Of a DNA stretch of 41,434 nt, positions 6,058 to 28,309 are shown piece after piece. This stretch comes from Verrucomicrobiota bacterium (GTDB lineage Bacteria; Verrucomicrobiota; Verrucomicrobiia; Opitutales; Opitutaceae), in contig JAQGON010000116.1 in the NCBI GenBank assembly GCA_028293565.1, positions 1 to 41,434 on the forward strand, given 5' to 3'. The notes under the pieces were generated by a model. The model did not search any database, had not been told where the DNA came from, and worked only from the letters and a program-made list of their open reading frames with translations. The position numbers were made by a program, and so were the translations under genes. The first letter of the stretch is position 1. Each line of letters opens with the position of its first letter.

Positions 6058-6834
6058 ATGGCTGCGGCGCTCCTCGTTGAACTTCAAGACGTCTCCAAGC
6101 GGTATGGCGACGGGCCGGTCGTGCTCGAGCATGTCAATCTGTCCGCCGAGGCGGGCGAGTTCGTCAGCCTGATCGGGCCGAGCGGATGCGGGAAGTCCAC
6201 CCTCCTCCGCCTCATCGCCGGCCTGAGCCCGGTCACCCGCGGCGCGATCTCGGTCCACGGCCGCACGCCGGACGAAGCCGCGGCGGAACTCGCGTTCGTC
6301 TTCCAGGAGCCGACGCTGCTGCCGTGGCTCACGGTCGCGAAAAACGTGGCCTTGCCCCGCCGGCTCCGCGGCCTCCCGCCCTCCGAGCGCGCCGCCGTCA
6401 CGCGCCGCGTGCTCGAGCTGGTGCGGCTCGGCGACCGCCTGGAGGCGTTTCCGCGGCAGCTCTCCGGCGGACAGAAGATGCGGGTCTCGATCGCGCGCGC
6501 CCTTTCGCTCGCCCCGAAGCTGCTGCTGCTCGACGAGCCCTTCGGCGCCCTCGACGAAATGACCCGCGAGCATCTCAACGAGGAACTCCTCGCGATCCGC
6601 GAGCAGCAGGCCTGGACCGCTTTTTTCGTCACGCACTCCGTCGCGGAGGCGGTTTTCCTTTCCAGCCGGATCGTCGTCATGGCCGCCGGCCCCGGGCGGA
6701 TCCACACGGAGGTCGCCGTGCCGCTCGCTTATCCGCGCACCGCGGCGACGCGGCTGTCCCGCGAGTACCACGGCCTCGTCGCCGAAGTCTCGCGCCTCCT
6801 CCGCTCGGTCGAGGCGACCACCGCCGCGCGCTGA
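6058..6834 (+). CDS. NitT/TauT-type ABC importer, ATP-binding protein
   Basis: 258 residues. Walker A is GPSGCGKST (about 42-50), the Q-loop is FVFQEPTLLPWLTV, the signature is LSGGQKMRVSIARAL, Walker B is LLLLDEPFGALDEMTR and the H-loop is FVTHSVAEAVFLS. FQEPxLLPWxTV together with DEPFGALDExTR is characteristic of ATPases for nitrate, taurine, alkanesulfonate and thiamine-precursor uptake. A purine-rich AGAGGGGA lies immediately before the ATG, unusually close for a ribosome binding site. The permease gene begins 13 bp after the stop, making an operon with 6848-7639 and 7645-8619. Confidence 0.93.
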   Translation: MAAALLVELQDVSKRYGDGPVVLEHVNLSAEAGEFVSLIGPSGCGKSTLLRLIAGLSPVTRGAISVHGRTPDEAAAELAFVFQEPTLLPWLTVAKNVALPRRLRGLPPSERAAVTRRVLELVRLGDRLEAFPRQLSGGQKMRVSIARALSLAPKLLLLDEPFGALDEMTREHLNEELLAIREQQAWTAFFVTHSVAEAVFLSSRIVVMAAGPGRIHTEVAVPLAYPRTAATRLSREYHGLVAEVSRLLRSVEATTAAR

Positions 6835-6847
6835 AAATCCTCCCCTG

Positions 6848-7639
6848 ATGCCGAAGCGCCTGCTCCACCTCCTGCTCCCCGCCTTCACCGGCGCGCTCTT
6901 CGTCGCCATCTGGTACGCGATCCGGTACGCGATGTCCGAGGAGATGCGGTTCCTCCTGCCGACACCAGGGGAGATTCTTGCGGCGCTCCACGACAACCGC
7001 GACGCCCTCGGACGCGCGGCGCTCAACACCACCGAAGGCGCGCTCCTCGGCTTCGTCTTCGCCGTGGTCATCAGCGCCGCTCTCGCCCTGGCGCTCTCGC
7101 TGTCGTCGCTCGTGCGGATCAGCCTCTATCCGTACCTGATGATCCTGCAGATGACGCCCGTCATCATTTTCGCCCCGATCCTCGTCCTCTGGGTGGGCGC
7201 CGGGATCAAGAGCGTGGTCGTGATCACTTTCCTGATCTGTTTTTTCCCGCTCGTCGTCAACACGACGCAGGGGCTGATCTCGACCGACCGCAACCTCGTC
7301 GAACTCTTCCGGATGTACCGCGCGCGGCGCCTCCAGGAAATCCTCCACCTCCGCGTCCCGGCCGCCCTGCCCTATTTCTTCACCGGCCTGCGGATCGCCG
7401 CGACCCTCGCGCCGATCGGGGCGCTGGTCGGCGACTACACGGCCGGAAGCTCCGCGGGCGACGGCGGCGGCCTCGGCTTCCAGGCGATCATCTATTCGAG
7501 CCAGGCGAAATATCCCGCCCTGTTCGCCACCGCGGCCGTCACCTGCGTGCTCGGGTTTGTCTTCGTCGCCGTGGTCGTCAGCCTCAGCTGGCTCGCCCTT
7601 CACCAATGGCACGACTCGTACGAGCGCGCCGACACCTGA
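6848..7639 (+). CDS. NitT/TauT-type ABC importer, permease
   Basis: 263 residues with about six membrane helices. The first is LLHLLLPAFTGALFVAIWYAI, and an EAA-loop region is seen around TTQGLISTDRNLVELFRMY and LRVPAALPYFFTGLRIA. This is the BPD_transp_1 fold as found in SsuC, TauC and ThiX. LFRMYxAxxxQExxxLxxPAALPYxFxGLRIA is the usual coupling-helix sequence contacting the ATPase. The binding-protein gene starts 5 bp after the stop codon. Substrate specificity is not carried by this subunit. Confidence 0.92.
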   Translation: MPKRLLHLLLPAFTGALFVAIWYAIRYAMSEEMRFLLPTPGEILAALHDNRDALGRAALNTTEGALLGFVFAVVISAALALALSLSSLVRISLYPYLMILQMTPVIIFAPILVLWVGAGIKSVVVITFLICFFPLVVNTTQGLISTDRNLVELFRMYRARRLQEILHLRVPAALPYFFTGLRIAATLAPIGALVGDYTAGSSAGDGGGLGFQAIIYSSQAKYPALFATAAVTCVLGFVFVAVVVSLSWLALHQWHDSYERADT

Positions 7640-7644
7640 ACCTC

Positions 7645-8619
7645 ATGACCAAGCGTCCCCCCTTCCTCCTCGCGCTCGCGCTCCTGTCGCTGCCCGCCGC
7701 GTCCGCCGCCGAAAAGGCGCCGCTGAAAATCACCGTGCAGCTCGACTGGATTTCGGAGCCGGAACACGGCGGGTTCTACCAGGCGCTCGCGCGGGGATTT
7801 TTCCGCGACGAAGGCCTCGATGTGACGCTCGTCCCGGGAGGGCCCAATGCGTTTGTCATGCCGAAGGTCGCCACCGGCCAGGCGGACATCGGCCAGGCCG
7901 ACAGCACCAACACGCTGCTCCAGCAGGCGGAGGGCCTGCCGATCCTCCAGGTCGCCGCCGTGTTCCAGGATGATCCGTCCGGCCTGCTCATTCATGCCGC
8001 CAGCAGCGTGAGGAAGTTCGAGGATCTCCAGGGCAAGGCCGTCATCGCCCGTCCGGAGTGGGCCTTCCTGAAATTCCTCCAGAAGAAATACCACCTCGTC
8101 TTTTCCGTCGTCCCGCAGAATTTTTCCGTCGCCGCCTTCCTCGGAAACCGGGAGGCGATCCAGCAGGGCTATTTCATCTCCGAGCCTTACCACATCGTGA
8201 AGGCGGGCGGGCAGATGCCCCGGTTTCTTTCGACGTGGGACGCCGGCTTCCGTTCGTACGCCGTGCTGATCACGAACCGGAAATTCGCGCGCGAACATCC
8301 CTCCGAGTTGAAGGCGTTCCTGCGGGCGTACGTCCGCGGCTGGCGGGACTACGTCACGGGCGACCCGGCGCCGGCGCACGAGGCGCTGAAGCGGGCGAAC
8401 GCGAACAACACCGACGACTTCATGAATTTCTCGCGGCGGATGATCATCGACGAGCGGCTGGTGACCGGCCGCGATGCCGACGGCGGCCCCGCGAAGATCG
8501 GGCAGATCGATCCCGCGCGCTACGCCACCCAGATCGCCCAGCTCGAAGACCTGGGCATCCTGCCGAAGGGCAAGGTCACCGCGGCGAAGGCGATGACGAC
8601 GGAATTCCTGCCGAAGTAG
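7645..8619 (+). CDS. NMT1/THI5-like ABC substrate-binding protein
   Basis: 324 residues from the ATG at 7645. The signal peptide is MTKRPPFLLALALLSLPAASA. The mature part begins with the NMT1/THI5-like block ITVQLDWISEPEHGGFYQA, then RGFFRDEGLDVTLVPGG, and has the central GQADIGQADSTN segment. Proteins with LDW near the N terminus include ThiY, which binds a formyl-aminopyrimidine thiamine precursor, as well as nitrate and sulfonate binders. The operon carries no thi, ssu or tau enzyme gene, so the ligand stays open. An in-frame start further upstream would lie inside the permease gene and put charged residues before the signal peptide, so 7645 is preferred. Confidence 0.9.
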   Translation: MTKRPPFLLALALLSLPAASAAEKAPLKITVQLDWISEPEHGGFYQALARGFFRDEGLDVTLVPGGPNAFVMPKVATGQADIGQADSTNTLLQQAEGLPILQVAAVFQDDPSGLLIHAASSVRKFEDLQGKAVIARPEWAFLKFLQKKYHLVFSVVPQNFSVAAFLGNREAIQQGYFISEPYHIVKAGGQMPRFLSTWDAGFRSYAVLITNRKFAREHPSELKAFLRAYVRGWRDYVTGDPAPAHEALKRANANNTDDFMNFSRRMIIDERLVTGRDADGGPAKIGQIDPARYATQIAQLEDLGILPKGKVTAAKAMTTEFLPK

Positions 8620-17486: not shown

Positions 17487-18446
17487 TTGGACGAACCGGA
17501 CCGCATCAGGAACCGCATCATCGACAGCCGGCAGATCGCGGCATTCGCGGCCTTGGTCCGCCATCGCAGTTTCACGACGGCGGCCGAGGAGTTGTTCCTC
17601 ACGCAGTCCGCGGTCAGCCACGCGATCAAGTCGCTCGAGGCCGACATCGGGTGCCGGCTGTTCGAGCGACGCGGGAGAGCCATCTCCCTCACCCGTGCCG
17701 GCGAGCAGCTCCACCTGCGCACCGAAAAAATCCTCAGCGAGATGCGCGCCGCCCGGCTCGAGATCGAGCACCTCTCGCCGAAAGGCGAGAGCCAGCTCTG
17801 CGTCGGCGCCGGCACCCTCGCCTGCCAGTACATCCTCCCGAGCGTGCTGAAGGAGTTCCGCCAGACTCATCCGAAATGCCGGGTCCGGCTCGAGCCGGGG
17901 AACCTGCCGAACCTCCTCGAGCTGCTCTACACCCATCAGATCGATTTCGCGCTCGGCGTGGACAGCGCGCCTTCGGAGGACTTCTCCTTCGAGAAGATTT
18001 TCGAGGACGAGCTCCTGTTCTTCATCTCGCCGCAGCACGCCTGGGGAAAAATCAAGCGCGTGCCTCACGCCGCGATCGTCACCGAGACCTTCGTGGTGCC
18101 GATGAAGCAGGGGCAGACCTCCGCGATCCTCGACAAATATTTCCGCACCGAAAAAATTTCCCCCAAGAACCTGATCGCCGCCGGCAGCCTCGATGCGGCC
18201 AAGCAGCTCGTCGGGTCCGGCTTCGGCGTGGGATTCTTTGCGCACTGGCAGGTCGCGGCGGAGGCCGCCGCCGGTTCGCTCGTCGCCGTGCCGCTCACCA
18301 CCCGGCGGCTGATCCGCAGCTGGGTCGTGGCGCGGCTCAAGGGCCGCGAACCGCAGAGGATCGAGCAGGAATTCATCCAGCGGTGCAAATCCGTCCTGAC
18401 GACGCTTGCCGCCGTCGGCACGGTGGTCCTCACGGTCGCAGCCTGA
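17487..18446 (+). CDS. LysR-family transcriptional regulator
   Basis: About 319 residues. The N-terminal winged helix-turn-helix reads DSRQIAAFAALVRHRSFTTA, then AAEELFLTQSAVSHAIKSLEADIGCRLFERR. The effector domain runs from about residue 105 (LCVGAGTLACQYILPSVLKEF) to the end and has the periplasmic-binding fold. No in-frame ATG precedes the HTH, so I place the start at the TTG at 17487, which gives a normal N terminus. A start at another weak codon nearby is possible. The gene is read in the same direction as the TonB receptor and amidohydrolase genes that follow. LysR proteins usually respond to a small molecule and control neighbouring genes, so it may be their regulator. Confidence 0.88.
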   Translation: MDEPDRIRNRIIDSRQIAAFAALVRHRSFTTAAEELFLTQSAVSHAIKSLEADIGCRLFERRGRAISLTRAGEQLHLRTEKILSEMRAARLEIEHLSPKGESQLCVGAGTLACQYILPSVLKEFRQTHPKCRVRLEPGNLPNLLELLYTHQIDFALGVDSAPSEDFSFEKIFEDELLFFISPQHAWGKIKRVPHAAIVTETFVVPMKQGQTSAILDKYFRTEKISPKNLIAAGSLDAAKQLVGSGFGVGFFAHWQVAAEAAAGSLVAVPLTTRRLIRSWVVARLKGREPQRIEQEFIQRCKSVLTTLAAVGTVVLTVAA

Positions 18447-18486
18447 GCCGCGACGTAGTTCCGCGGCGTAGTTCGCTGATCTTAAC

Positions 18487-18580
18487 GGGTGGAGCGTATT
18501 GCCCTCAATGCGCTGGCGGTGTGAGCAGACCTTGATTGCCGACGGAGCGGCCAACGCGTTGAGGGCAACGCATTCCACCC
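18487..18580. repeat. Palindromic repeat family B, copy 1
   Basis: 94 bp. GGGTGGAGCG at the left pairs with the closing CATTCCACCC; inside are TTGCCCTCAATGCG and CGTTGAGGGCAA. The centre holds the non-palindromic block CTTGATTGCCGACGGAGC, preserved in all full copies. Others are at 26778-26871 and 26981-27073, with a partial one at 18710-18743. The LysR-to-TonB-receptor gap (18447-18906, 460 bp) holds this repeat, a family E copy, the partial B copy and the operator-like repeats. Confidence 0.85.
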
Positions 18581-18612
18581 GCGGTTCAAACTTCGGGCTG
18601 ACGCCGGATTGT

Positions 18613-18703
18613 TTTTACCGCGAAGGTCGCAAAGTTCGCAAAGGCCGATCCCCGGAGGAATTGGTCCGAACCTTCGCGCCCTTCGCGATCTTGGCGGTGA
18701 AAC
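18613..18703. repeat. Palindromic repeat family E, copy 2
   Basis: TTTTTACCGCGAAGGTCGC at the left pairs imperfectly with the right arm CTTGGCGGTGAAA. The inner part contains GGTCCGAACCTTCGCGCCC. It lies between two pieces of family B, as if inserted into or next to a second B copy. Confidence 0.7.
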
Positions 18704-18709
18704 CAGACC

Positions 18710-18743
18710 GCGGCCAACGCGTTGAAGACAACGCATTCCACCC
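18710..18743. repeat. Palindromic repeat family B, partial right arm
   Basis: CGGCCAACGCGTTGAAGACA followed by ACGCATTCCACCCGCGG matches the right half of copy 1 nearly base for base. The left half is absent, its place being taken by the family E element. Confidence 0.7.
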
Positions 18744-18765
18744 GCGGCCGCGCGTTTCGGATTAT

Positions 18766-18798
18766 TCGATGAAACGATTTACTCGATAAAACGGTTAC
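18766..18798. promoter_or_regulatory. Two tandem operator-like repeats before the TonB receptor gene
   Basis: TCGATGAAACGATTTAC (18766-18782) is followed without gap by TCGATAAAACGGTTAC (18783-18798). Each contains an AAACGNTT core with central CG, the pattern of LacI/GalR-family operators. A possible -10 element, TAATAC, lies at 18810-18815, so the second repeat would overlap the -35 region, as expected for a repressor site. A LysR site is an alternative, but the T-N11-A pattern is not clearly better. No LacI-type gene is present in the window. The assignment as operator is inference. Confidence 0.5.
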
Positions 18799-18906
18799 GG
18801 GAAAAAAATTAATACGACGGCGCGCGGGTGAGTCATGGCACGTGGCGTGCAAAGCCGGACCACGCCAACCGTCAGACCAAACACCGACCAGGAACCCGCC
18901 CAGGCC

Positions 18907-21303
18907 ATGCACAAACTTCTCCGCCCCGTTTTCATCCTCACCCTCGCCACCGCCGCTGTCCTCGCGGAAACCGATCCCGGCGCCGCGCCCAGGCCGCCGG
19001 AGCCCGCGAAGGGCCCGGAGGCGATCGTGCTGCTGGAAAAATTCGTCACGAGCGAGCGCAACGACGATCCCGGCGGCGTGTTGCCCGCGAAACCGGTGTC
19101 GTCGGTCTTCGGCACGGCGCTGACCGTCGCCGAGACCCCGCGGTCCGTTTCCGTCGTCAGCACCGAGATGCTCAACCAGTACGGCATCACGAATGTCGAG
19201 GGCCTGGCCGCCGTCGTGCCGAACTCCTACACCTCGTCGGCCTTCGGCATCGCCGGCTCGCTCGATCTGCGCGGCACCAACGCCGCGAATTTCTTCCGCG
19301 GCATGCAGCGGATCGAAAACGGCGGCATCTTTCCCACGCCGATCGGCGCGACCGACAGCATCGACGTCGTGCGCGGGCCGCCGTCCCCGATCTACGGTCC
19401 GGGGAAGATCGGCGGCTACCTCAATTTCGTGCCCAAGGCCGCGCGGGCCAGCACCGGCAAATACCTCGACCGGCCCACGAGCCGCGTGAACCTGACCTAC
19501 GGTTCCTATGACCAGCGGCAGCTCACCGCCGAACAGGGCGGGCCGCTGCCGATGTCGAACCGCAACGGCGGATACTACGTCTACGCGCTGATGGAAAATT
19601 CCGGGAGCTGGTACAACAACACGAAGAATCTCCAGACCATCCTCCAGACGTCGTTCGATCTCCAGCTGACGCACGCGTGGCGCGCCGAGTTCGGCCAGCA
19701 ATACCAGTACTGGGCCTCCACCGAGCTCTCCGGCACGAACCGCCTCACCCAGGAGACCGTCGACCACGGAACCTACCTCAGCGGCCAGCCGCTCGTGAAT
19801 CTGGACACCAACGGCAACGGCGTCGTCAGCGTGCCCGAGCTTGGCGCCTATTCCTTCGGCGTGCGTTACGGCACCAACCCCGCGTCGATCGTCCTGCCGG
19901 CGTCCTTCGCCCTGAATCCGGCGACGATCAGGCAGACCACCATCGAGGGCAACGCCATCTTCACCGAGCCGGGAGACTACGCCAACGCCACGTCCGCCTG
20001 CTACTTCGTCGACCTCATCAACGACACCAACCCGGACCTGGTCTTCAAGAACCAGATGTTCCTCGACACGACGCGGCGCGCCAAGGAGACCACGCAGGGT
20101 TTCGCGACAAAGGCCCGCGGCGTCCAGTTCGAGGAAAAAATCACCGCGGAGCAGCACCTTGCGCCGTTCAAATGGCTGCAGCTCGCGAACAGCGCGGCGC
20201 TCTCGTTCCGGTATCTCAATGCCGAAAACGCCGCGTACAACGCGATGGAGATCTACAGCCGGCGCGACCTCGCCGTCGGCGCGAAGCCGAATGACCGCGT
20301 CACGAGCCCGCTCGACGATCCCGGCACCAAGTGGGGCTCGGATCGCTTCAGCACGCAGTACGCGTACGGCCTCGGCGTGATCACCACCGCGACGTTCTTC
20401 GACCGCCTCGTCGTCATCCTCGGCGGCCGGGCCGACCAGCTTTCGCTCTACTCGGTCCCGAGTTCGCTCGCGACCCTCGACGGCGCCTTCCGCGCGGGCG
20501 TGCGCAACCATCCGTTCGCTAAGTCCTACACGGAAAGTTTCTCCTACCGGCTGCTTCCCGGCATCATTCCCTACTATACGCAGTCCCACCAGCAGGCCCT
20601 GCAGATCGGAAACATCGGGGAGGTCGCGCCGGCGAACGTCGCGGCGCCGCTGACCGACGCGATTCTGCAGGAGGCCGGCGTGAAGCTCTCGCTGCTCCAC
20701 GACACGTTCTTCGCCGCAGCCGACGTCTACAAGCAGACGCGGACCCAGATTGACGCGACGTCGTTCGAAAGCTTTTCAACCGAGGCCAAGGGGCTCGAGT
20801 TCGAGCTGCGTTACGTGCCGACCAAGCGCCTGAGCATTTCCGGCGCGATGTCGTGGCAGAGGACCGTGTACCTTGTCCCGCCGACGAGTTTCCTCGTCCC
20901 GCCGGAATTTCTCGGGCTGACGTCGCAGCAGGCCCTCGGCGGCCTCCTGAGCGTCACCAACCTCCCGCGCACCGACCAGTTCCTCCGGCGCGGCGGTTTT
21001 CCCGACAAGCTCTTCAGCCTCTACGGCACCTACACGCTGGCGAACGGCTGGGGCGCCACCCTCGGCGCCGTGCACAACGACCGCTTCGCCTCCGGATCCG
21101 GACGGATGGTTTACCTGCCGGCGGCGACCAACGTCAGCGGCGCGGTCTTCTACGCGCGGAAAACGTGGGAGTTCCGCCTGCGCGTGAACAACATCACCGA
21201 CGCGAACATCTGGCAGTCCCTCGCGCCCGACAGCACGGGCAACGTCGTCGCGCTGAAGAAGCCGCCGCGGACGTACGTCGCGACGTACGGCTACTCGTTC
21301 TGA
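18907..21303 (+). CDS. TonB-dependent outer-membrane receptor
   Basis: 798 residues from the ATG at 18907, with signal peptide MHKLLRPVFILTLATAAVLA. A possible TonB-box region is AIVLLEKFVTSE (about 39-50). The plug domain contains ETPRSVSVVSTEMLNQYGI, then SLDLRGTN, DVVRGPPSPIYGPGKIGGYL, followed by beta-barrel sequence to a C-terminal aromatic (TYVATYGYSF), the outer-membrane insertion signal. The ETPxSVxVV plug resembles siderophore-type receptors. However, the partners here are hydrolases rather than iron genes, so the ligand may be an organic nutrient. Three amidohydrolase genes follow in the same orientation, the first 67 bp downstream. An ATG-type start upstream at 18835 would precede the signal peptide and is less likely. 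Confidence 0.92.
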   Translation: MHKLLRPVFILTLATAAVLAETDPGAAPRPPEPAKGPEAIVLLEKFVTSERNDDPGGVLPAKPVSSVFGTALTVAETPRSVSVVSTEMLNQYGITNVEGLAAVVPNSYTSSAFGIAGSLDLRGTNAANFFRGMQRIENGGIFPTPIGATDSIDVVRGPPSPIYGPGKIGGYLNFVPKAARASTGKYLDRPTSRVNLTYGSYDQRQLTAEQGGPLPMSNRNGGYYVYALMENSGSWYNNTKNLQTILQTSFDLQLTHAWRAEFGQQYQYWASTELSGTNRLTQETVDHGTYLSGQPLVNLDTNGNGVVSVPELGAYSFGVRYGTNPASIVLPASFALNPATIRQTTIEGNAIFTEPGDYANATSACYFVDLINDTNPDLVFKNQMFLDTTRRAKETTQGFATKARGVQFEEKITAEQHLAPFKWLQLANSAALSFRYLNAENAAYNAMEIYSRRDLAVGAKPNDRVTSPLDDPGTKWGSDRFSTQYAYGLGVITTATFFDRLVVILGGRADQLSLYSVPSSLATLDGAFRAGVRNHPFAKSYTESFSYRLLPGIIPYYTQSHQQALQIGNIGEVAPANVAAPLTDAILQEAGVKLSLLHDTFFAAADVYKQTRTQIDATSFESFSTEAKGLEFELRYVPTKRLSISGAMSWQRTVYLVPPTSFLVPPEFLGLTSQQALGGLLSVTNLPRTDQFLRRGGFPDKLFSLYGTYTLANGWGATLGAVHNDRFASGSGRMVYLPAATNVSGAVFYARKTWEFRLRVNNITDANIWQSLAPDSTGNVVALKKPPRTYVATYGYSF

Positions 21304-21370
21304 CCGCGAATTTCCATCGCGCGCCACCTTCACCACCCATCGTCCAGACCAAAAACCAATCTTCGTTCCC

Positions 21371-22789
21371 ATGTTCGCCCATCGTTCCCTCACCGCCTTC
21401 TGTCTCGCCCTCTGCCTCGCCACCGGCTCGCTCGCCGCCGCCGCCAACCGGCTGATCGTCCAGGGCGGCACGCTCCTCACCATCAAGCCGGGCGAAGAGG
21501 AGCCGTTTGTCGGCTATCTCGTGATCGGCGCCGACGGACGCATCGCCGCGGTGCGCAAAGGCGGCGTGCCCGCCGGCGTGACCGCCACCGAGACGATCGA
21601 CGTCACGGGCAAGATCGTCATCCCGGGATTCATCTCCGCCCACAGCCACATCTGGCAGAGCGCGTTTCGCGGACTCGCGCCGTATGACTACGTGCGCAAC
21701 TGGGTCACGGCGACGCGCTCCCAAAGCAACTTCGGCTCCGCCGAGGACTTCTACTGGTTCACGCTCCACGGCTCCCTCGACCACCTGCGCCACGGCATCA
21801 CCAGCGCGTACAATTTCACGCAGGGCAACCGCGATCCCGCCTACGAGCAGCTCCAGCTCAAGGCCGAGCTCGATTCCGGCCTGCGGGTCGTGCACGCGTG
21901 GGCGCGCAGCGGACAGACGAGCTCGGCGCCGGGGACTCCGGTGCTCGGCCCGGCCGAGGTCCGGAAGCAGCTCACGGAATTCATCACCTTTGCCGAGCCC
22001 TACCGGAACTCGCCGCTCCTGCTCAAGTTTTCCATCTCGGGCGTGGCCCTCAGCCAGGAAACGGTCTCGCTCGACTATGCGCTGGTGAAGGAGTTCGGGC
22101 TGGTCAACCAGACGCACTTCCTCGAATACCCGCGCGACACCGAGGAGCAGCGCGCCCATTTCCGCTTCTTTGTCGAGGCCGGCGCGCTCGGGCCGACCCT
22201 CTACTTCGGCCATTTCATCCACACCAACGACGCGATGCTCGAGGCCGTGGGCAAGGCCGGCGGCGGCATGTCGTGGAATCCGCTCTCGAATGGACGCCTC
22301 GCCTCGGGCCTCGCCGACATTCCCCGGTACATTCGCTTCGGCGTGAAGATCGGGATGGGCGTCGACGGCCAGGCCAGCGCCGACCTGCCCGATCCGTTCG
22401 AAAACATGCGCATGGGCCTCTATGGGATTCGCGCCAAATACGAGAGCGCCACCATTCTCAAGCCGATCGACGTGCTGCGCTTTCACACGCTCGGCAGCGC
22501 GACCGTGATGAACGTGGCCGACAAAGTCGGATCGCTCGAGGCCGGCAAGTTCGGCGATTTCCTGATCATCAACCCCGCGTCCGTGGATCGCGCGCCGGTC
22601 TACGATCCGTACGCCACGCTCGTCTTCGCCTGCAACACCCAGAACCTCGAGGGCGTTTACGTCGGCGGCGAACTCGTGAGCTCCTACTGCAAGCTCACCA
22701 AGGCGGACTTCGCCAACGTGCAGAAGGAAATGCACGAACGCGTGAACAAGATCCGCGCCGCCCATCAGGTCGCCCTCACGACCCAATAA
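21371..22789 (+). CDS. Exported ATZ/TRZ-type metal-dependent amidohydrolase 1
   Basis: 472 residues with signal peptide MFAHRSLTAFCLALCLATGS, LAAAA following. The TIM-barrel amidohydrolase ligands are visible: HxH in SAHSHIWQS (H91, H93), HxxE in THFLE (H249, E252), H281 in FGHFIH and D332 in GMGVDGQAS. The C-terminal GSLEAGKFGDFLIINP is the usual beta-sandwich closing segment. The family includes guanine deaminase, SsnA, TrzN and AtzA/B, which remove amino, halo or alkylamino groups from heterocycles. Most are cytoplasmic, so an export signal is unusual. It lacks an extra loop of about 15 residues present in its two downstream paralogues. The substrate is unknown. Confidence 0.9.
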   Translation: MFAHRSLTAFCLALCLATGSLAAAANRLIVQGGTLLTIKPGEEEPFVGYLVIGADGRIAAVRKGGVPAGVTATETIDVTGKIVIPGFISAHSHIWQSAFRGLAPYDYVRNWVTATRSQSNFGSAEDFYWFTLHGSLDHLRHGITSAYNFTQGNRDPAYEQLQLKAELDSGLRVVHAWARSGQTSSAPGTPVLGPAEVRKQLTEFITFAEPYRNSPLLLKFSISGVALSQETVSLDYALVKEFGLVNQTHFLEYPRDTEEQRAHFRFFVEAGALGPTLYFGHFIHTNDAMLEAVGKAGGGMSWNPLSNGRLASGLADIPRYIRFGVKIGMGVDGQASADLPDPFENMRMGLYGIRAKYESATILKPIDVLRFHTLGSATVMNVADKVGSLEAGKFGDFLIINPASVDRAPVYDPYATLVFACNTQNLEGVYVGGELVSSYCKLTKADFANVQKEMHERVNKIRAAHQVALTTQ

Positions 22790-22840
22790 AAACCCGCCGG
22801 CGGGACGCCCGCCCTGTCCCATCCGCCGACTTCGTCCTCC

Positions 22841-24346
22841 ATGAAAAACAATCTCCTTCGCGTCGCCTGCTTCATCCTCGCCTGTGCGGCCACCTCGGCC
22901 GGCGAGACCCTGCTGGTCAGAAACGGCCTGCTCATCACGATGAAACCGGGGGAGACGCGGCCGTATCTCGGCTATCTCGCGGTCGGAGCGGACGGCCGGA
23001 TCACCGCCGTCGCCGCCGGGGAGCCGCCCGCCGGACTCACCGCCGACCGCGTCGTCGACGCCGGCGGCGGGTTCGTCGCGCCCGGTTTCATCTCCGCGCA
23101 CAGCCATCTTTTCACCAGTCCGCTGCGCGGGCTCGGCCACACCGAGACGCTTTACGGCTGGGGCCGGGCCAACCAGCGGCTCAGCCAGCACGCGACGGCC
23201 GAGGACGTGTACTGGTTTTCGCTGCACGGTTCGCTGGATTTCCTGCGCAACGGGATCACCACCGCCTACGATTTCTCCATCTCCCCCGCGGTCGGCGGAC
23301 AGGCCGTCGGCGTCGGCGAGAAAGTCCCGCCGCCCGTGCTGCGTCCCGGGCCGTTCGAGGAAAACCAGATCCGCGCGAAGGCGGACGCCGGCCTGCGTTT
23401 CATCGACAGCATCAGCCTGCCGCGCGTCGGGTCGCGCGAGGAGATTCTCGCGCGCCTGGAAACCGTCCTCGCCTACGCGAAGGCGAACTACGCCGGCAAC
23501 CCGCTGTTCCTGAAAATGGCGATCAGCGGCGGGCTGCAGCGGGCGCCCACGAAGGAGACGGCGTTTCTCGAAGCCTACGTGATGAAGACCTACGGACTGA
23601 TGAACCAGTCCCATTTCCTCGAGAGCCCCGAGCGCGTGCCCGAGCAGCAGGAGAAATTCTACTGGTACGCCGAGGCCGGCGCGCTCGGCCCGGATTTCAT
23701 CTTCGGCCATTTCATCCAGACCAATCCCGACATCCTCCGCATCGCCGCCAAATCCGGCGCGAGCATGAGCTGGCAGCCGATGTCCAACAGCCGGCTGGCG
23801 TCGGGCGTCGCCGATATTCCGCTCTACCGCGCCTTCGGCCTGAAGGTCGCCGTCGGCCTGGACGACCAGTCGTGCACCGATCTCTCGGACCCGTTCCAGA
23901 ACCTCCGCATCGGCCTCGCGCTCATCCGCACGAAGTACAAGGACGCGAAGGCGCTCTCCGTCTACGACATGCTCTATCTCCACACCCTCGGGAGCGCCGA
24001 CACGCTGCGGATCGCCGACAAGGTCGGCAGCCTCGAGCCGGGCAAGTTCGCCGACTTCCTCATCGTCGATCCGAAGGATCCCGACACCGGCCCCGTTCAT
24101 GACGCCATCGCGCACTACGTCCTCGCGTGCGGGCTGCGCAATCTGAAGCAGGTCTACGTCGGCGGAAAACTGGTGGCCGACGGCACGAAGCTTCTCACGC
24201 AGGACGAGCGGAAGGTGCGTCGCGAAGTCGACGCGCGCATGGCCCGGCTCGAAGCCGCAGCCGCGGCCGCGGACCAGAAAACCGCAGCCCTGGGCCTCGG
24301 ACCCGAACCGCATCCGTTCGCGGTGGCGGTGCAGCGCGTCCGCTGA
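22841..24346 (+). CDS. Exported ATZ/TRZ-type metal-dependent amidohydrolase 2
   Basis: 501 residues, with signal peptide MKNNLLRVACFILACAATSA. Catalytic residues correspond to those of its neighbour: H87 and H89 (SAHSHLFTS), H258 with E261 (SHFLE), H290 (FGHFIQT) and D341 (VGLDDQSCTD). An insertion around residues 147-173 (VGVGEKVPPPVLRPGPFEE) distinguishes this gene and the next from the first. The C-terminal tail (about 470-501) is Ala-rich and charged. It follows amidohydrolase 1 by 51 bp and precedes amidohydrolase 3 by 19 bp, consistent with an operon built by duplication. Substrate unknown. Confidence 0.9.
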   Translation: MKNNLLRVACFILACAATSAGETLLVRNGLLITMKPGETRPYLGYLAVGADGRITAVAAGEPPAGLTADRVVDAGGGFVAPGFISAHSHLFTSPLRGLGHTETLYGWGRANQRLSQHATAEDVYWFSLHGSLDFLRNGITTAYDFSISPAVGGQAVGVGEKVPPPVLRPGPFEENQIRAKADAGLRFIDSISLPRVGSREEILARLETVLAYAKANYAGNPLFLKMAISGGLQRAPTKETAFLEAYVMKTYGLMNQSHFLESPERVPEQQEKFYWYAEAGALGPDFIFGHFIQTNPDILRIAAKSGASMSWQPMSNSRLASGVADIPLYRAFGLKVAVGLDDQSCTDLSDPFQNLRIGLALIRTKYKDAKALSVYDMLYLHTLGSADTLRIADKVGSLEPGKFADFLIVDPKDPDTGPVHDAIAHYVLACGLRNLKQVYVGGKLVADGTKLLTQDERKVRREVDARMARLEAAAAAADQKTAALGLGPEPHPFAVAVQRVR

Positions 24347-24365
24347 GCAGGACCTTTTCCGCCTT

Positions 24366-25856
24366 ATGAAATCCCACCTCCTCCGTCTCGCGTGGTTTGT
24401 CCTGCTCTGCCTCGCCGGCCGGGCCTCGGAAAGTCTCCTCGTCAAGAACGGCCTGTTCCTTCCGCTCGCGAAAGGCCTGCCCGAGACCTTCATCGGCTAC
24501 ATGACGGTCGGCGCGGACGGGCGCATCACCGCGCTCGCGGCGGGCGAGCCTCCCGCGGGGATCGTCGCCGAAAAGACGATCGACGCCGAAGGCCGGTTTG
24601 TCGCGCCCGGGTTCATCTCCGCGCACAGCCACCTGGCCTTCAGCCCGCTGCGCGGGCTCGGCAACACCGAGACGCTTTACGGCTGGATCGCCGCCAGCCA
24701 AAAATTCCTGAAGCCGACCACGGCCGACGACATCTACTGGTTCACGCTGCACGGTTCGCTCGACTTCATCCGCTGCGGGATCACGACGGCCTATGACTTC
24801 ACCACCTCGCCTTCGATCGGCGGCTTCGCCGCCGGCGTGGGCGAAATCGTGCCGCCGCCCGTGCTGAAGCCGGGCCCGTTCGAGGAGGCCCAGATCCGCG
24901 CGAAGATCGACGCCGGACTGCGGTTCATTGACAGCATCGGCATGCCGCGCGTCGGCACCGACGAGGAGATGATCGCACGGTTCGAAAAAATCGTCACCTA
25001 CGCCAAAACGACGTACGGCGCCAACCCGCTCTTCCTCAAGATGGCGCTGAGCGGCGGACTCCAGCGCGCCCCGACCAAGGCAACCGCGTATCTCGAGGCG
25101 CGCGTGATGAAGACCTTCGGCGTGCTCAACCAGTCGCACTTCCTGGAGAGCCCGGACCGCGTGCCGGAGCAGCAGGCCAAATTCTACTGGTACGAGGAAT
25201 CCGGCGCGCTGGGGCCGAATTTCATCTTCGGCCATTTCATCCAGACCACCCCCGACATCATCATGCGCGCCGCGCGTGCCGGAGCCAGCATGTCCTGGCA
25301 GCCCGCGTCCAACAGCCGCCTCGCCTCGGGGGTCGCGGACATTCCCCTTTACAAGGCGTTCGGGATGAAGATCGCGGTCGGGCTCGACAACCAGAACTGC
25401 ACCGACAACTCCGACCCCTTCAGCAACCTGCGCACGGGCCTGGCCCTGATCCGCACGAAATACAAGGACGCCAAGGCGCTCTCCGTGCGCGAAATGCTTT
25501 ATCTCCACACGCTCGGAAGCGCCGAGGTGCTGCAGATCGCCGACCAGGTCGGCAGCCTCGAGCCGGGCAAGTTCGCGGATTTCCTGATCGTCGACCCGCG
25601 CGATCCCGACACCGGTCCGCTGCACGACCCGGTGGCGACCTACGTGCTCGCGTGCGGGCTGCGCAATCTCAAGCAGGTCTACATTGGCGGAAAACTGGCC
25701 GCGGACGGATCGAAGATCCTCACCGCGGACGAGCCGCGCGTGATCGCCGAAGTCTATGCCCGCGTGGCCCGGATCCAGGCGCAGATCGACGCCGAAGCCA
25801 AGGCCGCCGCCGCGCTCGGCATCGGCCCGCCGCCGCACCCCTTCGCGCGGCGCTGA
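24366..25856 (+). CDS. Exported ATZ/TRZ-type metal-dependent amidohydrolase 3
   Basis: 496 residues, with signal peptide MKSHLLRLAWFVLLCLAGRA. It is a close paralogue of the preceding gene: GEIVPPPVLKPGPFEE, LFLKMALSGGLQRAPTK and NQSHFLESPDRVPEQQ match it almost residue for residue. Metal-site residues are H87, H89, H258, H290 and D341 (GLDNQNCTD). E261 fills the place of the glutamate in HxxE. Divergence between copies 2 and 3 is spread through the protein, including the 342-345 loop beside the metal aspartate (DQSC against NQNC), which may alter specificity. No terminator is evident after it. Confidence 0.9.
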   Translation: MKSHLLRLAWFVLLCLAGRASESLLVKNGLFLPLAKGLPETFIGYMTVGADGRITALAAGEPPAGIVAEKTIDAEGRFVAPGFISAHSHLAFSPLRGLGNTETLYGWIAASQKFLKPTTADDIYWFTLHGSLDFIRCGITTAYDFTTSPSIGGFAAGVGEIVPPPVLKPGPFEEAQIRAKIDAGLRFIDSIGMPRVGTDEEMIARFEKIVTYAKTTYGANPLFLKMALSGGLQRAPTKATAYLEARVMKTFGVLNQSHFLESPDRVPEQQAKFYWYEESGALGPNFIFGHFIQTTPDIIMRAARAGASMSWQPASNSRLASGVADIPLYKAFGMKIAVGLDNQNCTDNSDPFSNLRTGLALIRTKYKDAKALSVREMLYLHTLGSAEVLQIADQVGSLEPGKFADFLIVDPRDPDTGPLHDPVATYVLACGLRNLKQVYIGGKLAADGSKILTADEPRVIAEVYARVARIQAQIDAEAKAAAALGIGPPPHPFARR

Positions 25857-26067: not shown

Positions 26068-26757
26068 ATGAATGCCCTGAAATTTGCCTTCGTCGCGTGC
26101 GTTGCGTGCGCGTCCACTCTCGCCGCCCGCGCGGAAATGTCCGCCCAGGCGTGGCTCCGGCACTACTACCTGAATCCCCAGCCCGCCGAAGTGCCGCGCA
26201 TGGTCCAGGCGCTCAGTCACCAGGGATACTTTGACGAGTCGGCCGAGACGGCCGTCGCCATCGGCTTTTTCAGCACCGTCTTTGCCCAGAACCCGGATCG
26301 CGTGGACACGTGGCTCGCCGGATTCCGGAGCCTGCCGCGGAATCATCAGCGTCTGATGGCGGCGGCCTTGTGGCAGGCGGGAAATCCGCGTGGCGCCCCG
26401 ATGCTCCGTACGCTCAGCCAGTCCTCCGCCAGCCGCACCGAGATCCAGCAGCTTGCCGACCTGCCCAGCGCGCCCGTGGCCCGGACCGCGGTGCTCTCGC
26501 CCTCCTCGATGAACCTCCAGTGGGGCGCGTTTCTCGCGAGCGGCGACCGGAAATACATCACCAACGTCCTCGCTGCCATTGGCACGGGCGAGCCGGGTCT
26601 CGACGAGGCCGCGCGCTACGCCCTCGCGCAGAATGCCGCCGCGCACCCGCGCGTGATGGAGATCTGCCAGGCCGAACTCGCCAAGCAGCCGACCGGCGCG
26701 CAATCCGTCCTCCGCGCCGCGCTGGAAGACGCCGCCAAGGGCCACCCGCAATCCTGA
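26068..26757 (+). CDS. Exported hypothetical protein, helical
   Basis: 229 residues. The signal peptide is MNALKFAFVACVACASTLAA. The mature part is predicted mostly helical (SAQAWLRHYYLNPQPAEVP, LMAAALWQAGNPRGAPML, LDEAARYALAQNAAAHPRV), reminiscent of TPR- or HEAT-like scaffolds but without a clear repeat consensus. I do not recognise the family. It follows the amidohydrolases by 211 bp. That gap contains no gene and no clear promoter, so membership in the same transcript is uncertain. The final codons and stop fall inside the first unit of a 202-bp tandem duplication. Confidence 0.7.
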   Translation: MNALKFAFVACVACASTLAARAEMSAQAWLRHYYLNPQPAEVPRMVQALSHQGYFDESAETAVAIGFFSTVFAQNPDRVDTWLAGFRSLPRNHQRLMAAALWQAGNPRGAPMLRTLSQSSASRTEIQQLADLPSAPVARTAVLSPSSMNLQWGAFLASGDRKYITNVLAAIGTGEPGLDEAARYALAQNAAAHPRVMEICQAELAKQPTGAQSVLRAALEDAAKGHPQS

Positions 26758-26777
26758 ACGCGCAGCGGCCCGCCATC

Positions 26778-26871
26778 GGGTGGAGCGCGTTGCCCTCAAC
26801 GCGCTGGGGATTTGAGCTCGCCTTGATTGCCGACGGAGCCGCCAGCGCGTTAGGGGCAACGCGCTCCACCC
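26778..26871. repeat. Palindromic repeat family B, copy 2
   Basis: GGGTGGAGCGCGTTGCCC pairs with the closing GGGGCAACGCGCTCCACCC. The centre carries the same CTTGATTGCCGACGGAGC block as copy 1. It sits in unit 1 of the 202-bp duplication. Confidence 0.85.
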
Positions 26872-26980
26872 GCGGATGAACGGAACTCGTTCACCCGCTC
26901 TTTCGCGAAATAAATTTCACGCCGGCTGGCGGCCAGGCGGAGCCTGGTTGCAATCCTGAACGCGCAGCGACCCGCCACCT

Positions 26981-27073
26981 GGTGGAGCGCGTTACCCTCA
27001 ACGCGCTGGGGATTTGAGCTCGCCTTGATTGCCGACGGAGCCGCCAGCGCGTTAGGGGCAACGCGCTCCACCC
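26981..27073. repeat. Palindromic repeat family B, copy 3
   Basis: Nearly identical to copy 2 (one base change, GTTACCC for GTTGCCC, in the left arm) because it was carried by the 202-bp tandem duplication. The central CTTGATTGCCGACGGAGC block is unchanged. Confidence 0.85.
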
Positions 27074-27176
27074 GCGATGAACGGAACTCGTTTCACCCGC
27101 TCTTTCGCGAAATAAATTTCATGCCGGCTGGCGGCCCGGCGGAGCCTGGTTGGCATGTGGGGTGCATGACGGGGTC

Positions 27177-27812: not shown

Positions 27813-28309
27813 TCACCTCGCCGCCGCCTTAAGCCCGGCGATATCGAGTTTTTTCATGTTCATCATCGCCGCGAACACGCGGTCTCTTTTTTCGTGGTCC
27901 TTGCTCATGACGAGTTGCGGGAGGATCCGCGGGACGATCTGCCATGAGAGTCCGAACTTGTCCTTGAGCCATCCGCATTGCTGCGAGTTTTTCGGGCCGC
28001 CGCGCTTCAGTTTGTTCCAGAAGTAATCGACCTCCTTCTGGGTGTCGCAGAACACCTGGAACGAGATCGCCTCGCTGAACTTGAAAAGCGGGCCGCCGTT
28101 CAGCGCGGTGAACGTTTGCCCGTCGAGGGAAAATTCCACGGTCATGACCGTGCCGGTCTTGCGTCCATGAATTTCCCGGCCCGCCCGGGGTACCGGGAAA
28201 TCGTCGTGATCTTCGACCGTTTGAAAATCCCGGCATAATACCGCGCCGCCTGCTCGGCCTGGTGATCGAACCAGAGGCAGGGAGAGATCGTCTGAATGGA
28301 GGTTTTCAT
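27813..28309 (-). pseudogene. VOC-superfamily (PhnB/3-demethylubiquinone methyltransferase-like) gene with a frameshift
   Basis: The first part, from the ATG at 28309, reads MKTSIQTISPCLWFDHQAEQ and AARYYAGIFKRSKITTISRYP. The second part is in another frame: GREIHGRKTGTVMTVEFSLD, GQTFTALNGGPLFKFSEAIS, then FQVFCDTQKEVDYFWNKL to the end at 27813. Joined, they give about 165 residues, the usual length for this family. The reading frame is lost around 28165-28195, in a run rich in G and C (CCCCGGGCGGGCCGGG), consistent with one missing base. Either the gene is broken or the sequence has an indel error there. Family members often act in resistance or small-molecule binding, but many are uncharacterised. 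Confidence 0.8.

What the first reader, a model, noticed from the sequence alone, without database searches (positions are those of the whole stretch)
17487..25856. LysR regulator, TonB receptor and three tandem exported amidohydrolases: candidate undescribed uptake-and-hydrolysis system
Three consecutive ATZ/TRZ-type amidohydrolases, each with a signal peptide and a full set of metal ligands (HxH, HxxE, H, D), sit 67, 51 and 19 bp apart behind a TonB-dependent receptor and a LysR gene. Most well-known members of this enzyme family (guanine deaminase, AtzA/B, TrzN, SsnA) are cytoplasmic. An exported triplet beside a receptor suggests periplasmic cleavage of an imported heterocycle or amide. 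Copies 2 and 3 share a loop absent from copy 1 and differ beside the metal Asp, pointing to different specificities. The substrate assignment is inference.
Basis: partly seen in the sequence, partly recalled or inferred. Interest (0 to 1): 0.72.

Follow-up and report, generated by a model that had tools for sequence, protein, structure and literature searches.

The report
Receptor plus three exported deaminase-like enzymes
A bacterium carries a gene set that probably pulls a nitrogen-rich ring compound, most likely purine- or pteridine-like, through its outer membrane and strips amino groups from it before it reaches the cell interior; the substrate is inferred from neighbouring genes and has not been measured.

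Summary
In detail: LysR, a TonB-dependent receptor and three tandem COG0402-type amidohydrolases (AH1-3), each with a signal-like N-terminus and all metal ligands. The whole block recurs in one other genome (L039, 72-89% identity). The enzymes belong to a wider family (104 proteins, 80 loci, four phyla); none of the nine proteins tested reaches a listed NCBIfam cut-off. Two clades (AH1 type; AH2/AH3 type) occur together in 11 loci. Most diderm members look exported (82 of 88); the 22 without the segment are 16 Actinobacteria, one Acidobacteria MAG and five Opitutales proteins, four of these beside an NMT1-type binding protein. Neighbours in a minority of loci, across phyla, point to N-heterocycle and often purine catabolism. 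The receptor belongs to a clade that travels with these enzymes: a gammaproteobacterial query picks an enzyme-linked receptor first in 7 of 10 genomes. Best reading: receptor-fed periplasmic deamination of purine- or pteridine-like heterocycles. Shown: anatomy, conservation, family limits, gene company. Inferred: export, substrate, reaction, regulation. More than half of the loci show no informative neighbour, and the purine enrichment by itself is weak once source loci are removed. No matching description was found in the paper searches run.

The parts
17487..18446 (+).
   Evidence: Pfam LysR_substrate 134.7 bits, HTH_1 46.7 bits, both over cut-off; 73% in L039, 43% in L041 divergent from an AH array
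18447..18906 (.). 460-bp spacer between LysR and receptor with copies of a dispersed repeat
   Evidence: A 146-bp query from here has 50 matches in the own genome
18907..21303 (+). TonB-dependent receptor (798 aa), member of the receptor clade linked to these enzymes
   Evidence: Plug over cut-off; TIGR01783 77.9 bits, below its 223.5 cut-off; best match of the gammaproteobacterial L101 receptor in this genome, E 1e-86 vs 8.8e-17 for the next receptor
21371..22789 (+). AH1: COG0402-type amidohydrolase with signal-like N-terminus, clade A (GVDGQASAD)
   Evidence: Amidohydro_1 104.9 bits; signal rule; clade
22841..24346 (+). AH2: COG0402-type amidohydrolase with signal-like N-terminus, clade B (GLDDQSCTD), with the extra loop
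   Evidence: Amidohydro_1 101.1 bits; signal rule; clade
24366..25856 (+). AH3: COG0402-type amidohydrolase with signal-like N-terminus, clade B (GLDNQNCTD), 72% identical to AH2
   Evidence: Amidohydro_1 105.7 bits; identity; signal rule; clade
26068..26757 (+). Neighbour, probably not part of the system: 229-aa protein of no known family with a signal-like start (by eye)
   Evidence: No Pfam or NCBIfam match; 72% in L039, 45% beside an AH2 relative in L058; but found in 21 of 200 family genomes (own included), beside the enzyme in two of them, G000 and G188 contig C48

Best explanation
An uptake-and-deamination locus for an N-rich heterocycle. (1) The receptor, with TonB energy, brings a purine- or pteridine-like compound, or a conjugate of one, into the periplasm. 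(2) AH1, AH2 and AH3, exported single-metal hydrolases, remove exocyclic amino groups; clade A and clade B handle different positions or different bases. (3) Ammonia and the deaminated base cross the inner membrane; in relatives the neighbouring carriers are NMT1-type ABC, ECF-type or NCS2; in this genome an NMT1 binding protein beside a RidA-like and an Amidohydro_2-like gene on contig C121 is a candidate. (4) LysR induces receptor and enzymes. Shown by computation: anatomy, conserved block, family limits, gene company. Inferred: export (from sequence), substrate class, deamination as the reaction, steps 3 and 4.
For: Block conserved in L039. Signal-like segment in 82 of 104 proteins; receptor within 6 kb for 22 of 82 of these (nine loci) and 0 of 22 of the rest, though L113 has one at 8.6 kb. 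Neighbours in 80 loci vs 40 control stretches, each query's own locus not counted: NMT1 17 vs 0, receptor clade 12 vs 0, FAD_binding_4 10 vs 0, PRK07583-like 9 vs 0, creatininase 8 vs 0, purine panel 15 vs 2 (one-sided Fisher 0.0005, 0.006, 0.014, 0.022, 0.035, 0.034). Purine company checked by Pfam/NCBIfam: L117 Pribosyltran, PNP_UDP_1, IU_nuc_hydro, Adenine_deam_C, Xan_ur_permease; L102 two A_deaminase proteins and Adenine_deam_C; L065 IU_nuc_hydro and Xan_ur_permease; L091 HIU hydrolase over its NCBIfam cut-off; L067 NCS2 over its cut-off; L040 and L041 CDA-fold deaminases with signal-like starts. Pterin_4a proteins by the enzymes in L068, L109, L110 and about 6 kb off in L072. G237 and G245, looked at after the idea was formed, show creatininase, PRK07583-like, NMT1 and FAD_binding_4 genes beside the enzyme and a clade receptor on the same contig. 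Receptor clade co-travels. HxxE kept in 27 of 27 aligned rows.
Against: No assay, no structure (prediction switched off), no SignalP. 49 of 80 loci show none of the partner genes (51 with own-locus hits removed), including the five Gluconobacter loci and 11 of 12 Acidobacteria loci; the window counts as positive only through an NMT1 gene that I judge unlinked. The panel queries were taken from the test loci: with the eight source loci dropped the purine panel is 9 of 72 vs 2 of 40 (p 0.17), and one of the nine (L119) reads like RibD by eye; others lie 6-9 kb away. G237 and G245 are one genus, near-copies, and show no purine-panel gene. Window and L039 have no purine-panel gene; this genome has no NCS2 permease over cut-off. 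Sequence cannot choose between purines, pterins and other aminated rings. In G064 and G123 another receptor scores best; G188 has no strong match.
Confidence: 0.45

Rival explanations
1. Pteridine rather than purine (a narrower form of the best explanation): the exported enzymes deaminate pterins or folate breakdown products, with the Pterin_4a protein and ECF/NMT1 carriers as partners.
For: Pterin_4a by the enzymes in L068, L109, L110 and about 6 kb off in L072, with a signal-like start seen in L109 and L110. ECF-type genes in the same four loci: CbiQ over cut-off, S component 21.5 vs 26.7 bits, below cut-off (L109 tested). Known pterin deaminases are hydrolases of this broad kind (PMC9513972, passages read).
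Against: Pterin_4a in only 4 of 80 loci (3 with its own source left out); purine genes occur in more and more distant loci; the Arad3529 family could not be compared here.
Confidence: 0.2
2. Other N-rings: pyrimidines, creatinine-like lactams or alkaloids, handled with the creatininase, PRK07583-like, FAD_binding_4 and NMT1 set.
For: That set recurs in Komagataeibacter, Corynebacterium, Occultella, Verrucomicrobiota and the order-mates G237/G245; RutB/BiuH-like protein, below cut-offs, in Komagataeibacter; Rieske oxygenase in 6 of 80 loci.
Against: The same enzyme family sits in plain purine clusters (L117, L102, L065), and PRK07213-like and RidA-like genes occur in both kinds of locus (PRK07213-like in L067 and L181, below cut-off; RidA-like in L067 by eye and in L184 by Pfam).
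Confidence: 0.25
3. Ordinary guanine deaminases that happen to carry export signals, next to an unrelated siderophore receptor.
For: COG0402 fold; receptor matches TIGR01783 best, though below cut-off; 46 Plug domains in the genome make chance adjacency possible, roughly 2-3% by my estimate.
Against: Guanine deaminase model 72-84 bits vs cut-off 375; E. coli GuaD and SsnA, a Pseudoalteromonas GuaD and a named 8-oxoguanine deaminase fall outside the clade, support only 76; receptor and enzymes co-travel across phyla.
Confidence: 0.07
4. Amide or dipeptide hydrolysis in the periplasm (Cc2672-like).
For: Some exported amidohydrolases are peptidases (recalled); Cc2672 is a weak match (E 1e-4).
Against: Best solved relatives are an MTA/SAH deaminase, the 3hpa amidohydrolase and atrazine chlorohydrolase (E 1e-51 to 1e-53); HxxE pattern.
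Confidence: 0.03

Closest known systems
COG0402 deaminases with solved structures (4f0r MTA/SAH deaminase, 3hpa amidohydrolase, 4v1x atrazine chlorohydrolase)
   Same: Metal ligands and HxxE; profile E 1e-51 to 1e-53
   Different: None stands out as nearest; no export signal as far as recalled; the family has its own M309-x-W311 and N316-x-R318 invariants
Guanine deaminase / 8-oxoguanine deaminase / SsnA
   Same: Superfamily; several relatives lie in purine clusters
   Different: Curated cut-offs missed by a wide margin; outside the clade in a quick tree (support 76)
TonB-dependent siderophore receptors (TIGR01783)
   Same: Plug domain and best family match
   Different: 77.9 vs 223.5 bits; in the loci read the neighbours are C-N hydrolases; iron genes were not searched for
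Polysaccharide utilisation loci (recalled)
   Same: Outer-membrane receptor plus tandem exported hydrolases plus regulator
   Different: Hydrolases act on C-N bonds; a SusD-like partner was not searched for
Folate degradation by Variovorax F1 pterin deaminase (PMC9513972, passages read)
   Same: Hydrolytic deamination of a pteridine
   Different: Arad3529 family, not compared here; the words transporter and signal do not occur in that paper's main text

Membership tests
COG0402 / ATZ-TRZ amidohydrolases | Amidohydro_1 domain over Pfam cut-off | tested here: met
   104.9, 101.1, 105.7 vs 25 bits
COG0402 / ATZ-TRZ amidohydrolases | HxH, HxxE, H, D ligands | tested here: met
   Invariant in 27 of 27 aligned rows
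Guanine deaminase (TIGR02967) | Curated score | tested here: not met
   71.7 / 82.3 / 83.8 vs 375.4
8-oxoguanine deaminase (PRK08203) | Curated score | tested here: not met
   149.9 / 132.9 / 135.4 vs 532
5'-deoxyadenosine deaminase (PRK07228) | Curated score | tested here: not met
   134 / 132.6 / 124.7 vs 522
SsnA (TIGR03314) | Curated score | tested here: not met
   54.8 / 64.2 / 43.3 vs 455.5
Purine/pteridine deaminase by activity | Release of ammonia from the base | not testable with these tools
   No assay
Arad3529 pterin deaminases | Sequence relation to Arad3529 | not tested
   Sequence not at hand; PMC3557803 not held
TonB-dependent receptor | Plug domain over cut-off | tested here: met
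   41.9 vs 23.9 bits
TonB-dependent receptor | Barrel domain model | tested here: inconclusive
   No barrel family reported; length 798 aa and C-terminal Phe fit
TonB siderophore receptor (TIGR01783) | Curated score | tested here: not met
   77.9 vs 223.5
Exported protein | Sec signal peptide | tested here: inconclusive
   Own hydropathy rule positive for all three; no SignalP run

The most novel reading that the evidence does not exclude
A class of TonB-fed nitrogen-heterocycle utilisation loci: one receptor clade, seen here in Verrucomicrobiota and Pseudomonadota, dedicated to nucleobase-, pteridine- or ureide-like compounds and paired with arrays of exported C-N hydrolases (here COG0402 deaminases; elsewhere tandem amidases, L187 and L189), the nitrogen counterpart of polysaccharide utilisation loci. 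In some Actinobacteria and some Opitutales the same enzyme family works in the cytosol behind an NMT1 transporter.
Probability: 0.4. Interest if true: 0.72.

Novelty: new variant of a known kind. Interest (0 to 1): 0.5.

Why it matters
Outer-membrane receptors are mostly linked to iron, B12 and glycans (recalled). If a receptor clade takes up nucleobase- or pteridine-like compounds and exported enzymes deaminate them in the periplasm, then purine and pterin nitrogen, an abundant and partly insoluble pool, is reached by a route not usually considered. It would also give a function to a family whose members tested here match no curated model, in Verrucomicrobiota, acetic acid bacteria, Acidobacteria and Actinobacteria.

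Tried and rejected
NMT1-type ABC transporter at window 6058-8616 as the inner-membrane partner: rejected as a conserved partner, because its orthologue in the L039 genome (87%) lies on contig C22 beside RimO- and MacB-like genes (by eye), as in the window, while the enzyme block lies on C49 by matching coordinates. The 229-aa downstream protein as a core part: rejected, it is common without the enzymes. PRK07583-like neighbour as a proven pterin deaminase: dropped, no Arad3529 sequence to compare. Promoter and terminator scan: one promoter-like site against 0.8 expected; 15 terminator-like against 7.1, not followed. Tree with outgroups: own-genome rows L002 and L008 have very long branches and may be wrong frames, so it is used only for the named references, support 76. 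Plasmid search with AH2: 679 records, all under 60% identity; of the 30 listed the highest was 31%.

Rows dropped before the counts: of 88 loci (window and L039-L125), eight gave no counted enzyme: L092 (no single open frame), L099 (gene cut by the contig end; it has a clade receptor beside it), L103-L107 (under 34% identity), L124 (same protein as L071). 104 proteins from 80 loci remain. Near-copies (Gluconobacter, Edaphobacter, Komagataeibacter) and two loci on one contig (L060, L072) make the Fisher values optimistic. The 40 control stretches come only from same-family genomes, placed by hand, while test loci include other phyla. On 31 same-family or Opitutaceae-labelled loci: NMT1 9 vs 0, receptor 10 vs 0, purine 7 vs 2 (p 0.032), own-locus hits still included. 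The first counts (purine 17, NMT1 17, receptor 12, FAD_binding_4 11, PRK07583-like 10, creatininase 9, Rieske 6, Pterin_4a 4, ECF S 4, of 80) include hits of a query on its own source locus; removes them, and my confidence in the best explanation went from 0.50 to 0.45, the 'other N-rings' rival from 0.20 to 0.25 and interest from 0.52 to 0.50 for that reason. 'Exported' for neighbour proteins is read by eye from printed N-termini.
Full report
OBSERVATION. Frames, gaps (67, 51, 19 bp) and domains were checked. AH1 is 47 and 45% identical to AH2 and AH3; AH2 and AH3 are 72% identical; the shared loop and the residue after the metal Asp differ as described. Signal-like segments are present in all three by a hydropathy rule of mine, not SignalP. 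NCBIfam matches begin at residue 24-26 of AH1 and AH2 near the start of the models, so the segment lies before the domain.

CONSERVATION. Of 200 same-family genomes, 20 (own included) hold an AH2 relative at E<=1e-40; the 10 same-genus genomes listed have none. Of 387 phylum genomes, 7 (own included) hold an AH1 relative at E<=1e-60. A scan of GTDB contigs gave 70 loci. One, L039 (Verrucomicrobia isolate RYN_616), repeats the order LysR-receptor-AH1-AH2-AH3-229 aa protein at 72-89% identity. Thirteen of 80 loci hold two or more enzymes and 11 of 80 hold both clades (clade by motif, 15 of 104 proteins unclassified). G195 contig C224 has six match stretches over 7 kb, about five copies.

FAMILY. 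The 104 proteins split into two starred halves of 52, with AH1 in one and AH2/AH3 in the other (quick tree, SH-aLRT, midpoint root). No listed NCBIfam cut-off is reached by the three window enzymes (best 25 of 35-41 families shown); the nearest is PRK08204 'hypothetical protein', 149-190 bits against 391. The same holds for six relatives tested. The closest solved proteins are an MTA/SAH deaminase, an amidohydrolase and a chlorohydrolase at similar E-values. E. coli GuaD and SsnA, a Pseudoalteromonas GuaD and a named 8-oxoguanine deaminase fall outside, with weak support of 76.

COMPARTMENT. 82 of 104 proteins have the signal-like segment. The 22 without are 16 Actinobacteria, one Acidobacteria MAG (L091) and five Opitutales proteins (L058, L066, L111, L112, L113); the label needs two changes on the tree. 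A receptor of the linked clade lies within 6 kb of 22 of 82 proteins with the segment, in nine loci, and 0 of 22 without; the receptor model was seeded from these same loci. L113, without segment, has one at 8.6 kb. An NMT1 binding protein lies within 2.5 kb of 4 of 22 proteins without and 5 of 82 with the segment. Actinobacteria have no such outer membrane, so part of this is trivial; the four Opitutales cases (L058, L066, L111, L112) are not.

GENE COMPANY. Families were named by Pfam and NCBIfam. In L117 (same family as the window) the enzyme sits among a Xan_ur_permease, a phosphoribosyltransferase, a PNP_UDP_1 protein, a nucleoside hydrolase and an Adenine_deam_C protein (TIGR01178 below cut-off). 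In gammaproteobacterial L102, L065 and L074, taken together, the neighbours are adenine deaminase-like proteins (Pfam in L102; tblastn in L065 and L074), two adenosine deaminases (L102), NCS2-type permease (Pfam in L065), nucleoside hydrolase (L065) and XdhC (L074). L091 has HIU hydrolase next door; L067 an NCS2 permease; L040 and L041 CDA-fold deaminases by Pfam, L042 by tblastn. A second set (NMT1 transporter, creatininase, PRK07583-like amidohydrolase, FAD_binding_4) recurs in Komagataeibacter, Corynebacterium, Occultella and Verrucomicrobiota. L068, L072, L109 and L110 add Pterin_4a and ECF-type genes.

COUNTS. Each query's own locus left out, of 80 loci vs 40 control stretches: NMT1 17 vs 0, purine panel 15 vs 2, receptor clade 12 vs 0, FAD_binding_4 10 vs 0, PRK07583-like 9 vs 0, creatininase 8 vs 0, Rieske 5 vs 0, Pterin_4a 3 vs 0, ECF S 3 vs 0; 29 of 80 have at least one of these (receptor and Rieske aside) against 2 of 40. 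With source loci dropped altogether: NMT1 14 of 77, receptor 10 of 78, purine 9 of 72 (p 0.17), FAD_binding_4 10 of 79, PRK07583-like 9 of 79, creatininase 8 of 79. So NMT1, receptor and the second set stand by number; the purine link rests more on the quality of a few clusters (L117, L102, L065, L074, L075, L101) than on number. G237 and G245 (another family of the order, one genus, near-copies) were looked at after the idea was formed: they show the second set beside the enzyme, a RidA-like gene (L184) and a formamidase gene (L182), but no purine-panel gene; G245 has two enzymes 19 kb apart.

RECEPTOR. The genome has 46 Plug domains. The receptor of gammaproteobacterial L101, which lies next to its enzyme, was used against 10 genomes. 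The best match is a receptor on an enzyme contig within 16 kb of an enzyme in 7 (G000, G200/L039 by matching coordinates, G020, G048, G140, G237, G245). In G064 and G123 another receptor scores best and the enzyme-linked one third; in G188 the best is only 1.1e-21. In G000 the gap is large: 1e-86 against 8.8e-17. Other high-scoring members in G064, G123, G140 and G048 stand beside amidases, an isochorismatase-type hydrolase or a molybdenum hydroxylase; L187 and L189 show about five amidase frames or matches in a row (two frames tested by Pfam). This suggests a receptor clade for N-rich small molecules, paired with exported C-N hydrolases.

MECHANISM. See Best explanation. The HxxE glutamate is, from recalled knowledge, the proton shuttle of hydrolytic base deaminases; it is invariant in the 27 rows aligned. 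The inner-membrane step is open: the genome lacks an NCS2 permease over cut-off; two NMT1 binding proteins exist; the window copy is not linked in L039; the other, on C121, lies beside a RidA-like gene (by eye) and an Amidohydro_2-like gene (binding protein 52% to L072, hydrolase 42% to L109). Two MoCoBD_1 proteins exist, so a xanthine-type oxidase is possible but not shown.

LITERATURE. Ten searches of an open-licence library, so absence is weak evidence. 'pterin deaminase + amidohydrolase' 3; 'isoxanthopterin deaminase' 2; five pterin/TonB terms 2; 'pterin deaminase' 10; 'Opitutaceae + amidohydrolase + TonB' 0; three of four creatininase/NMT1/cytosine deaminase/amidohydrolase terms 4; 'TonB-dependent + guanine deaminase' 5; three further combinations 0 each. 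Listings only were seen, except PMC9513972, read in passages. None of the listed titles is on such a system.

VERDICT. A new variant of receptor-linked nutrient utilisation, with a purine- or pteridine-type substrate as the best inference. Interest 0.5; the wider class would deserve more if shown.

Noticed in passing
window 18455-18600, 18710-18747, 26777-26875, 26981-27076: A dispersed repeat of about 95 bp with 50 matches in the own genome, in the LysR-receptor spacer and downstream of the cluster.
   Followed up: partly
window 6058-8616: NMT1/THI5-type ABC transporter (ATPase, permease, binding protein); binding protein 57% identical to the one near the enzymes in L068, but its orthologue in the L039 genome is unlinked.
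   Followed up: yes
L187 542-7012, L189 12144-20000: About five amidase frames or matches in a row beside receptors of the same clade; some with signal- or Tat-like starts by eye; two frames of L187 tested by Pfam.
   Followed up: partly
L188 3706-13978: Three tandem proteins that look related by eye (one tested, no Pfam family) beside a receptor of the clade and a molybdenum hydroxylase.
   Followed up: no
L193 3992-7888 (own genome contig C121): NMT1 binding protein, RidA-like protein and Amidohydro_2-like protein together; possible unlinked partner of the window locus.
   Followed up: partly
L067 10667-11704, L112 7839-9023: Rieske oxygenase (Pfam Rieske and VanA_C in L112; tblastn in L067) directly beside AH2-type enzymes.
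   Followed up: no
window 27813-28145: 110-aa frame matching only positions 47-116 of the 3-dmu-9_3-mt model, perhaps a truncated gene.
   Followed up: no
L068: MAG record titled Akkermansia muciniphila carries a heterocycle island like those of Opitutaceae; the label may be doubtful.
   Followed up: no
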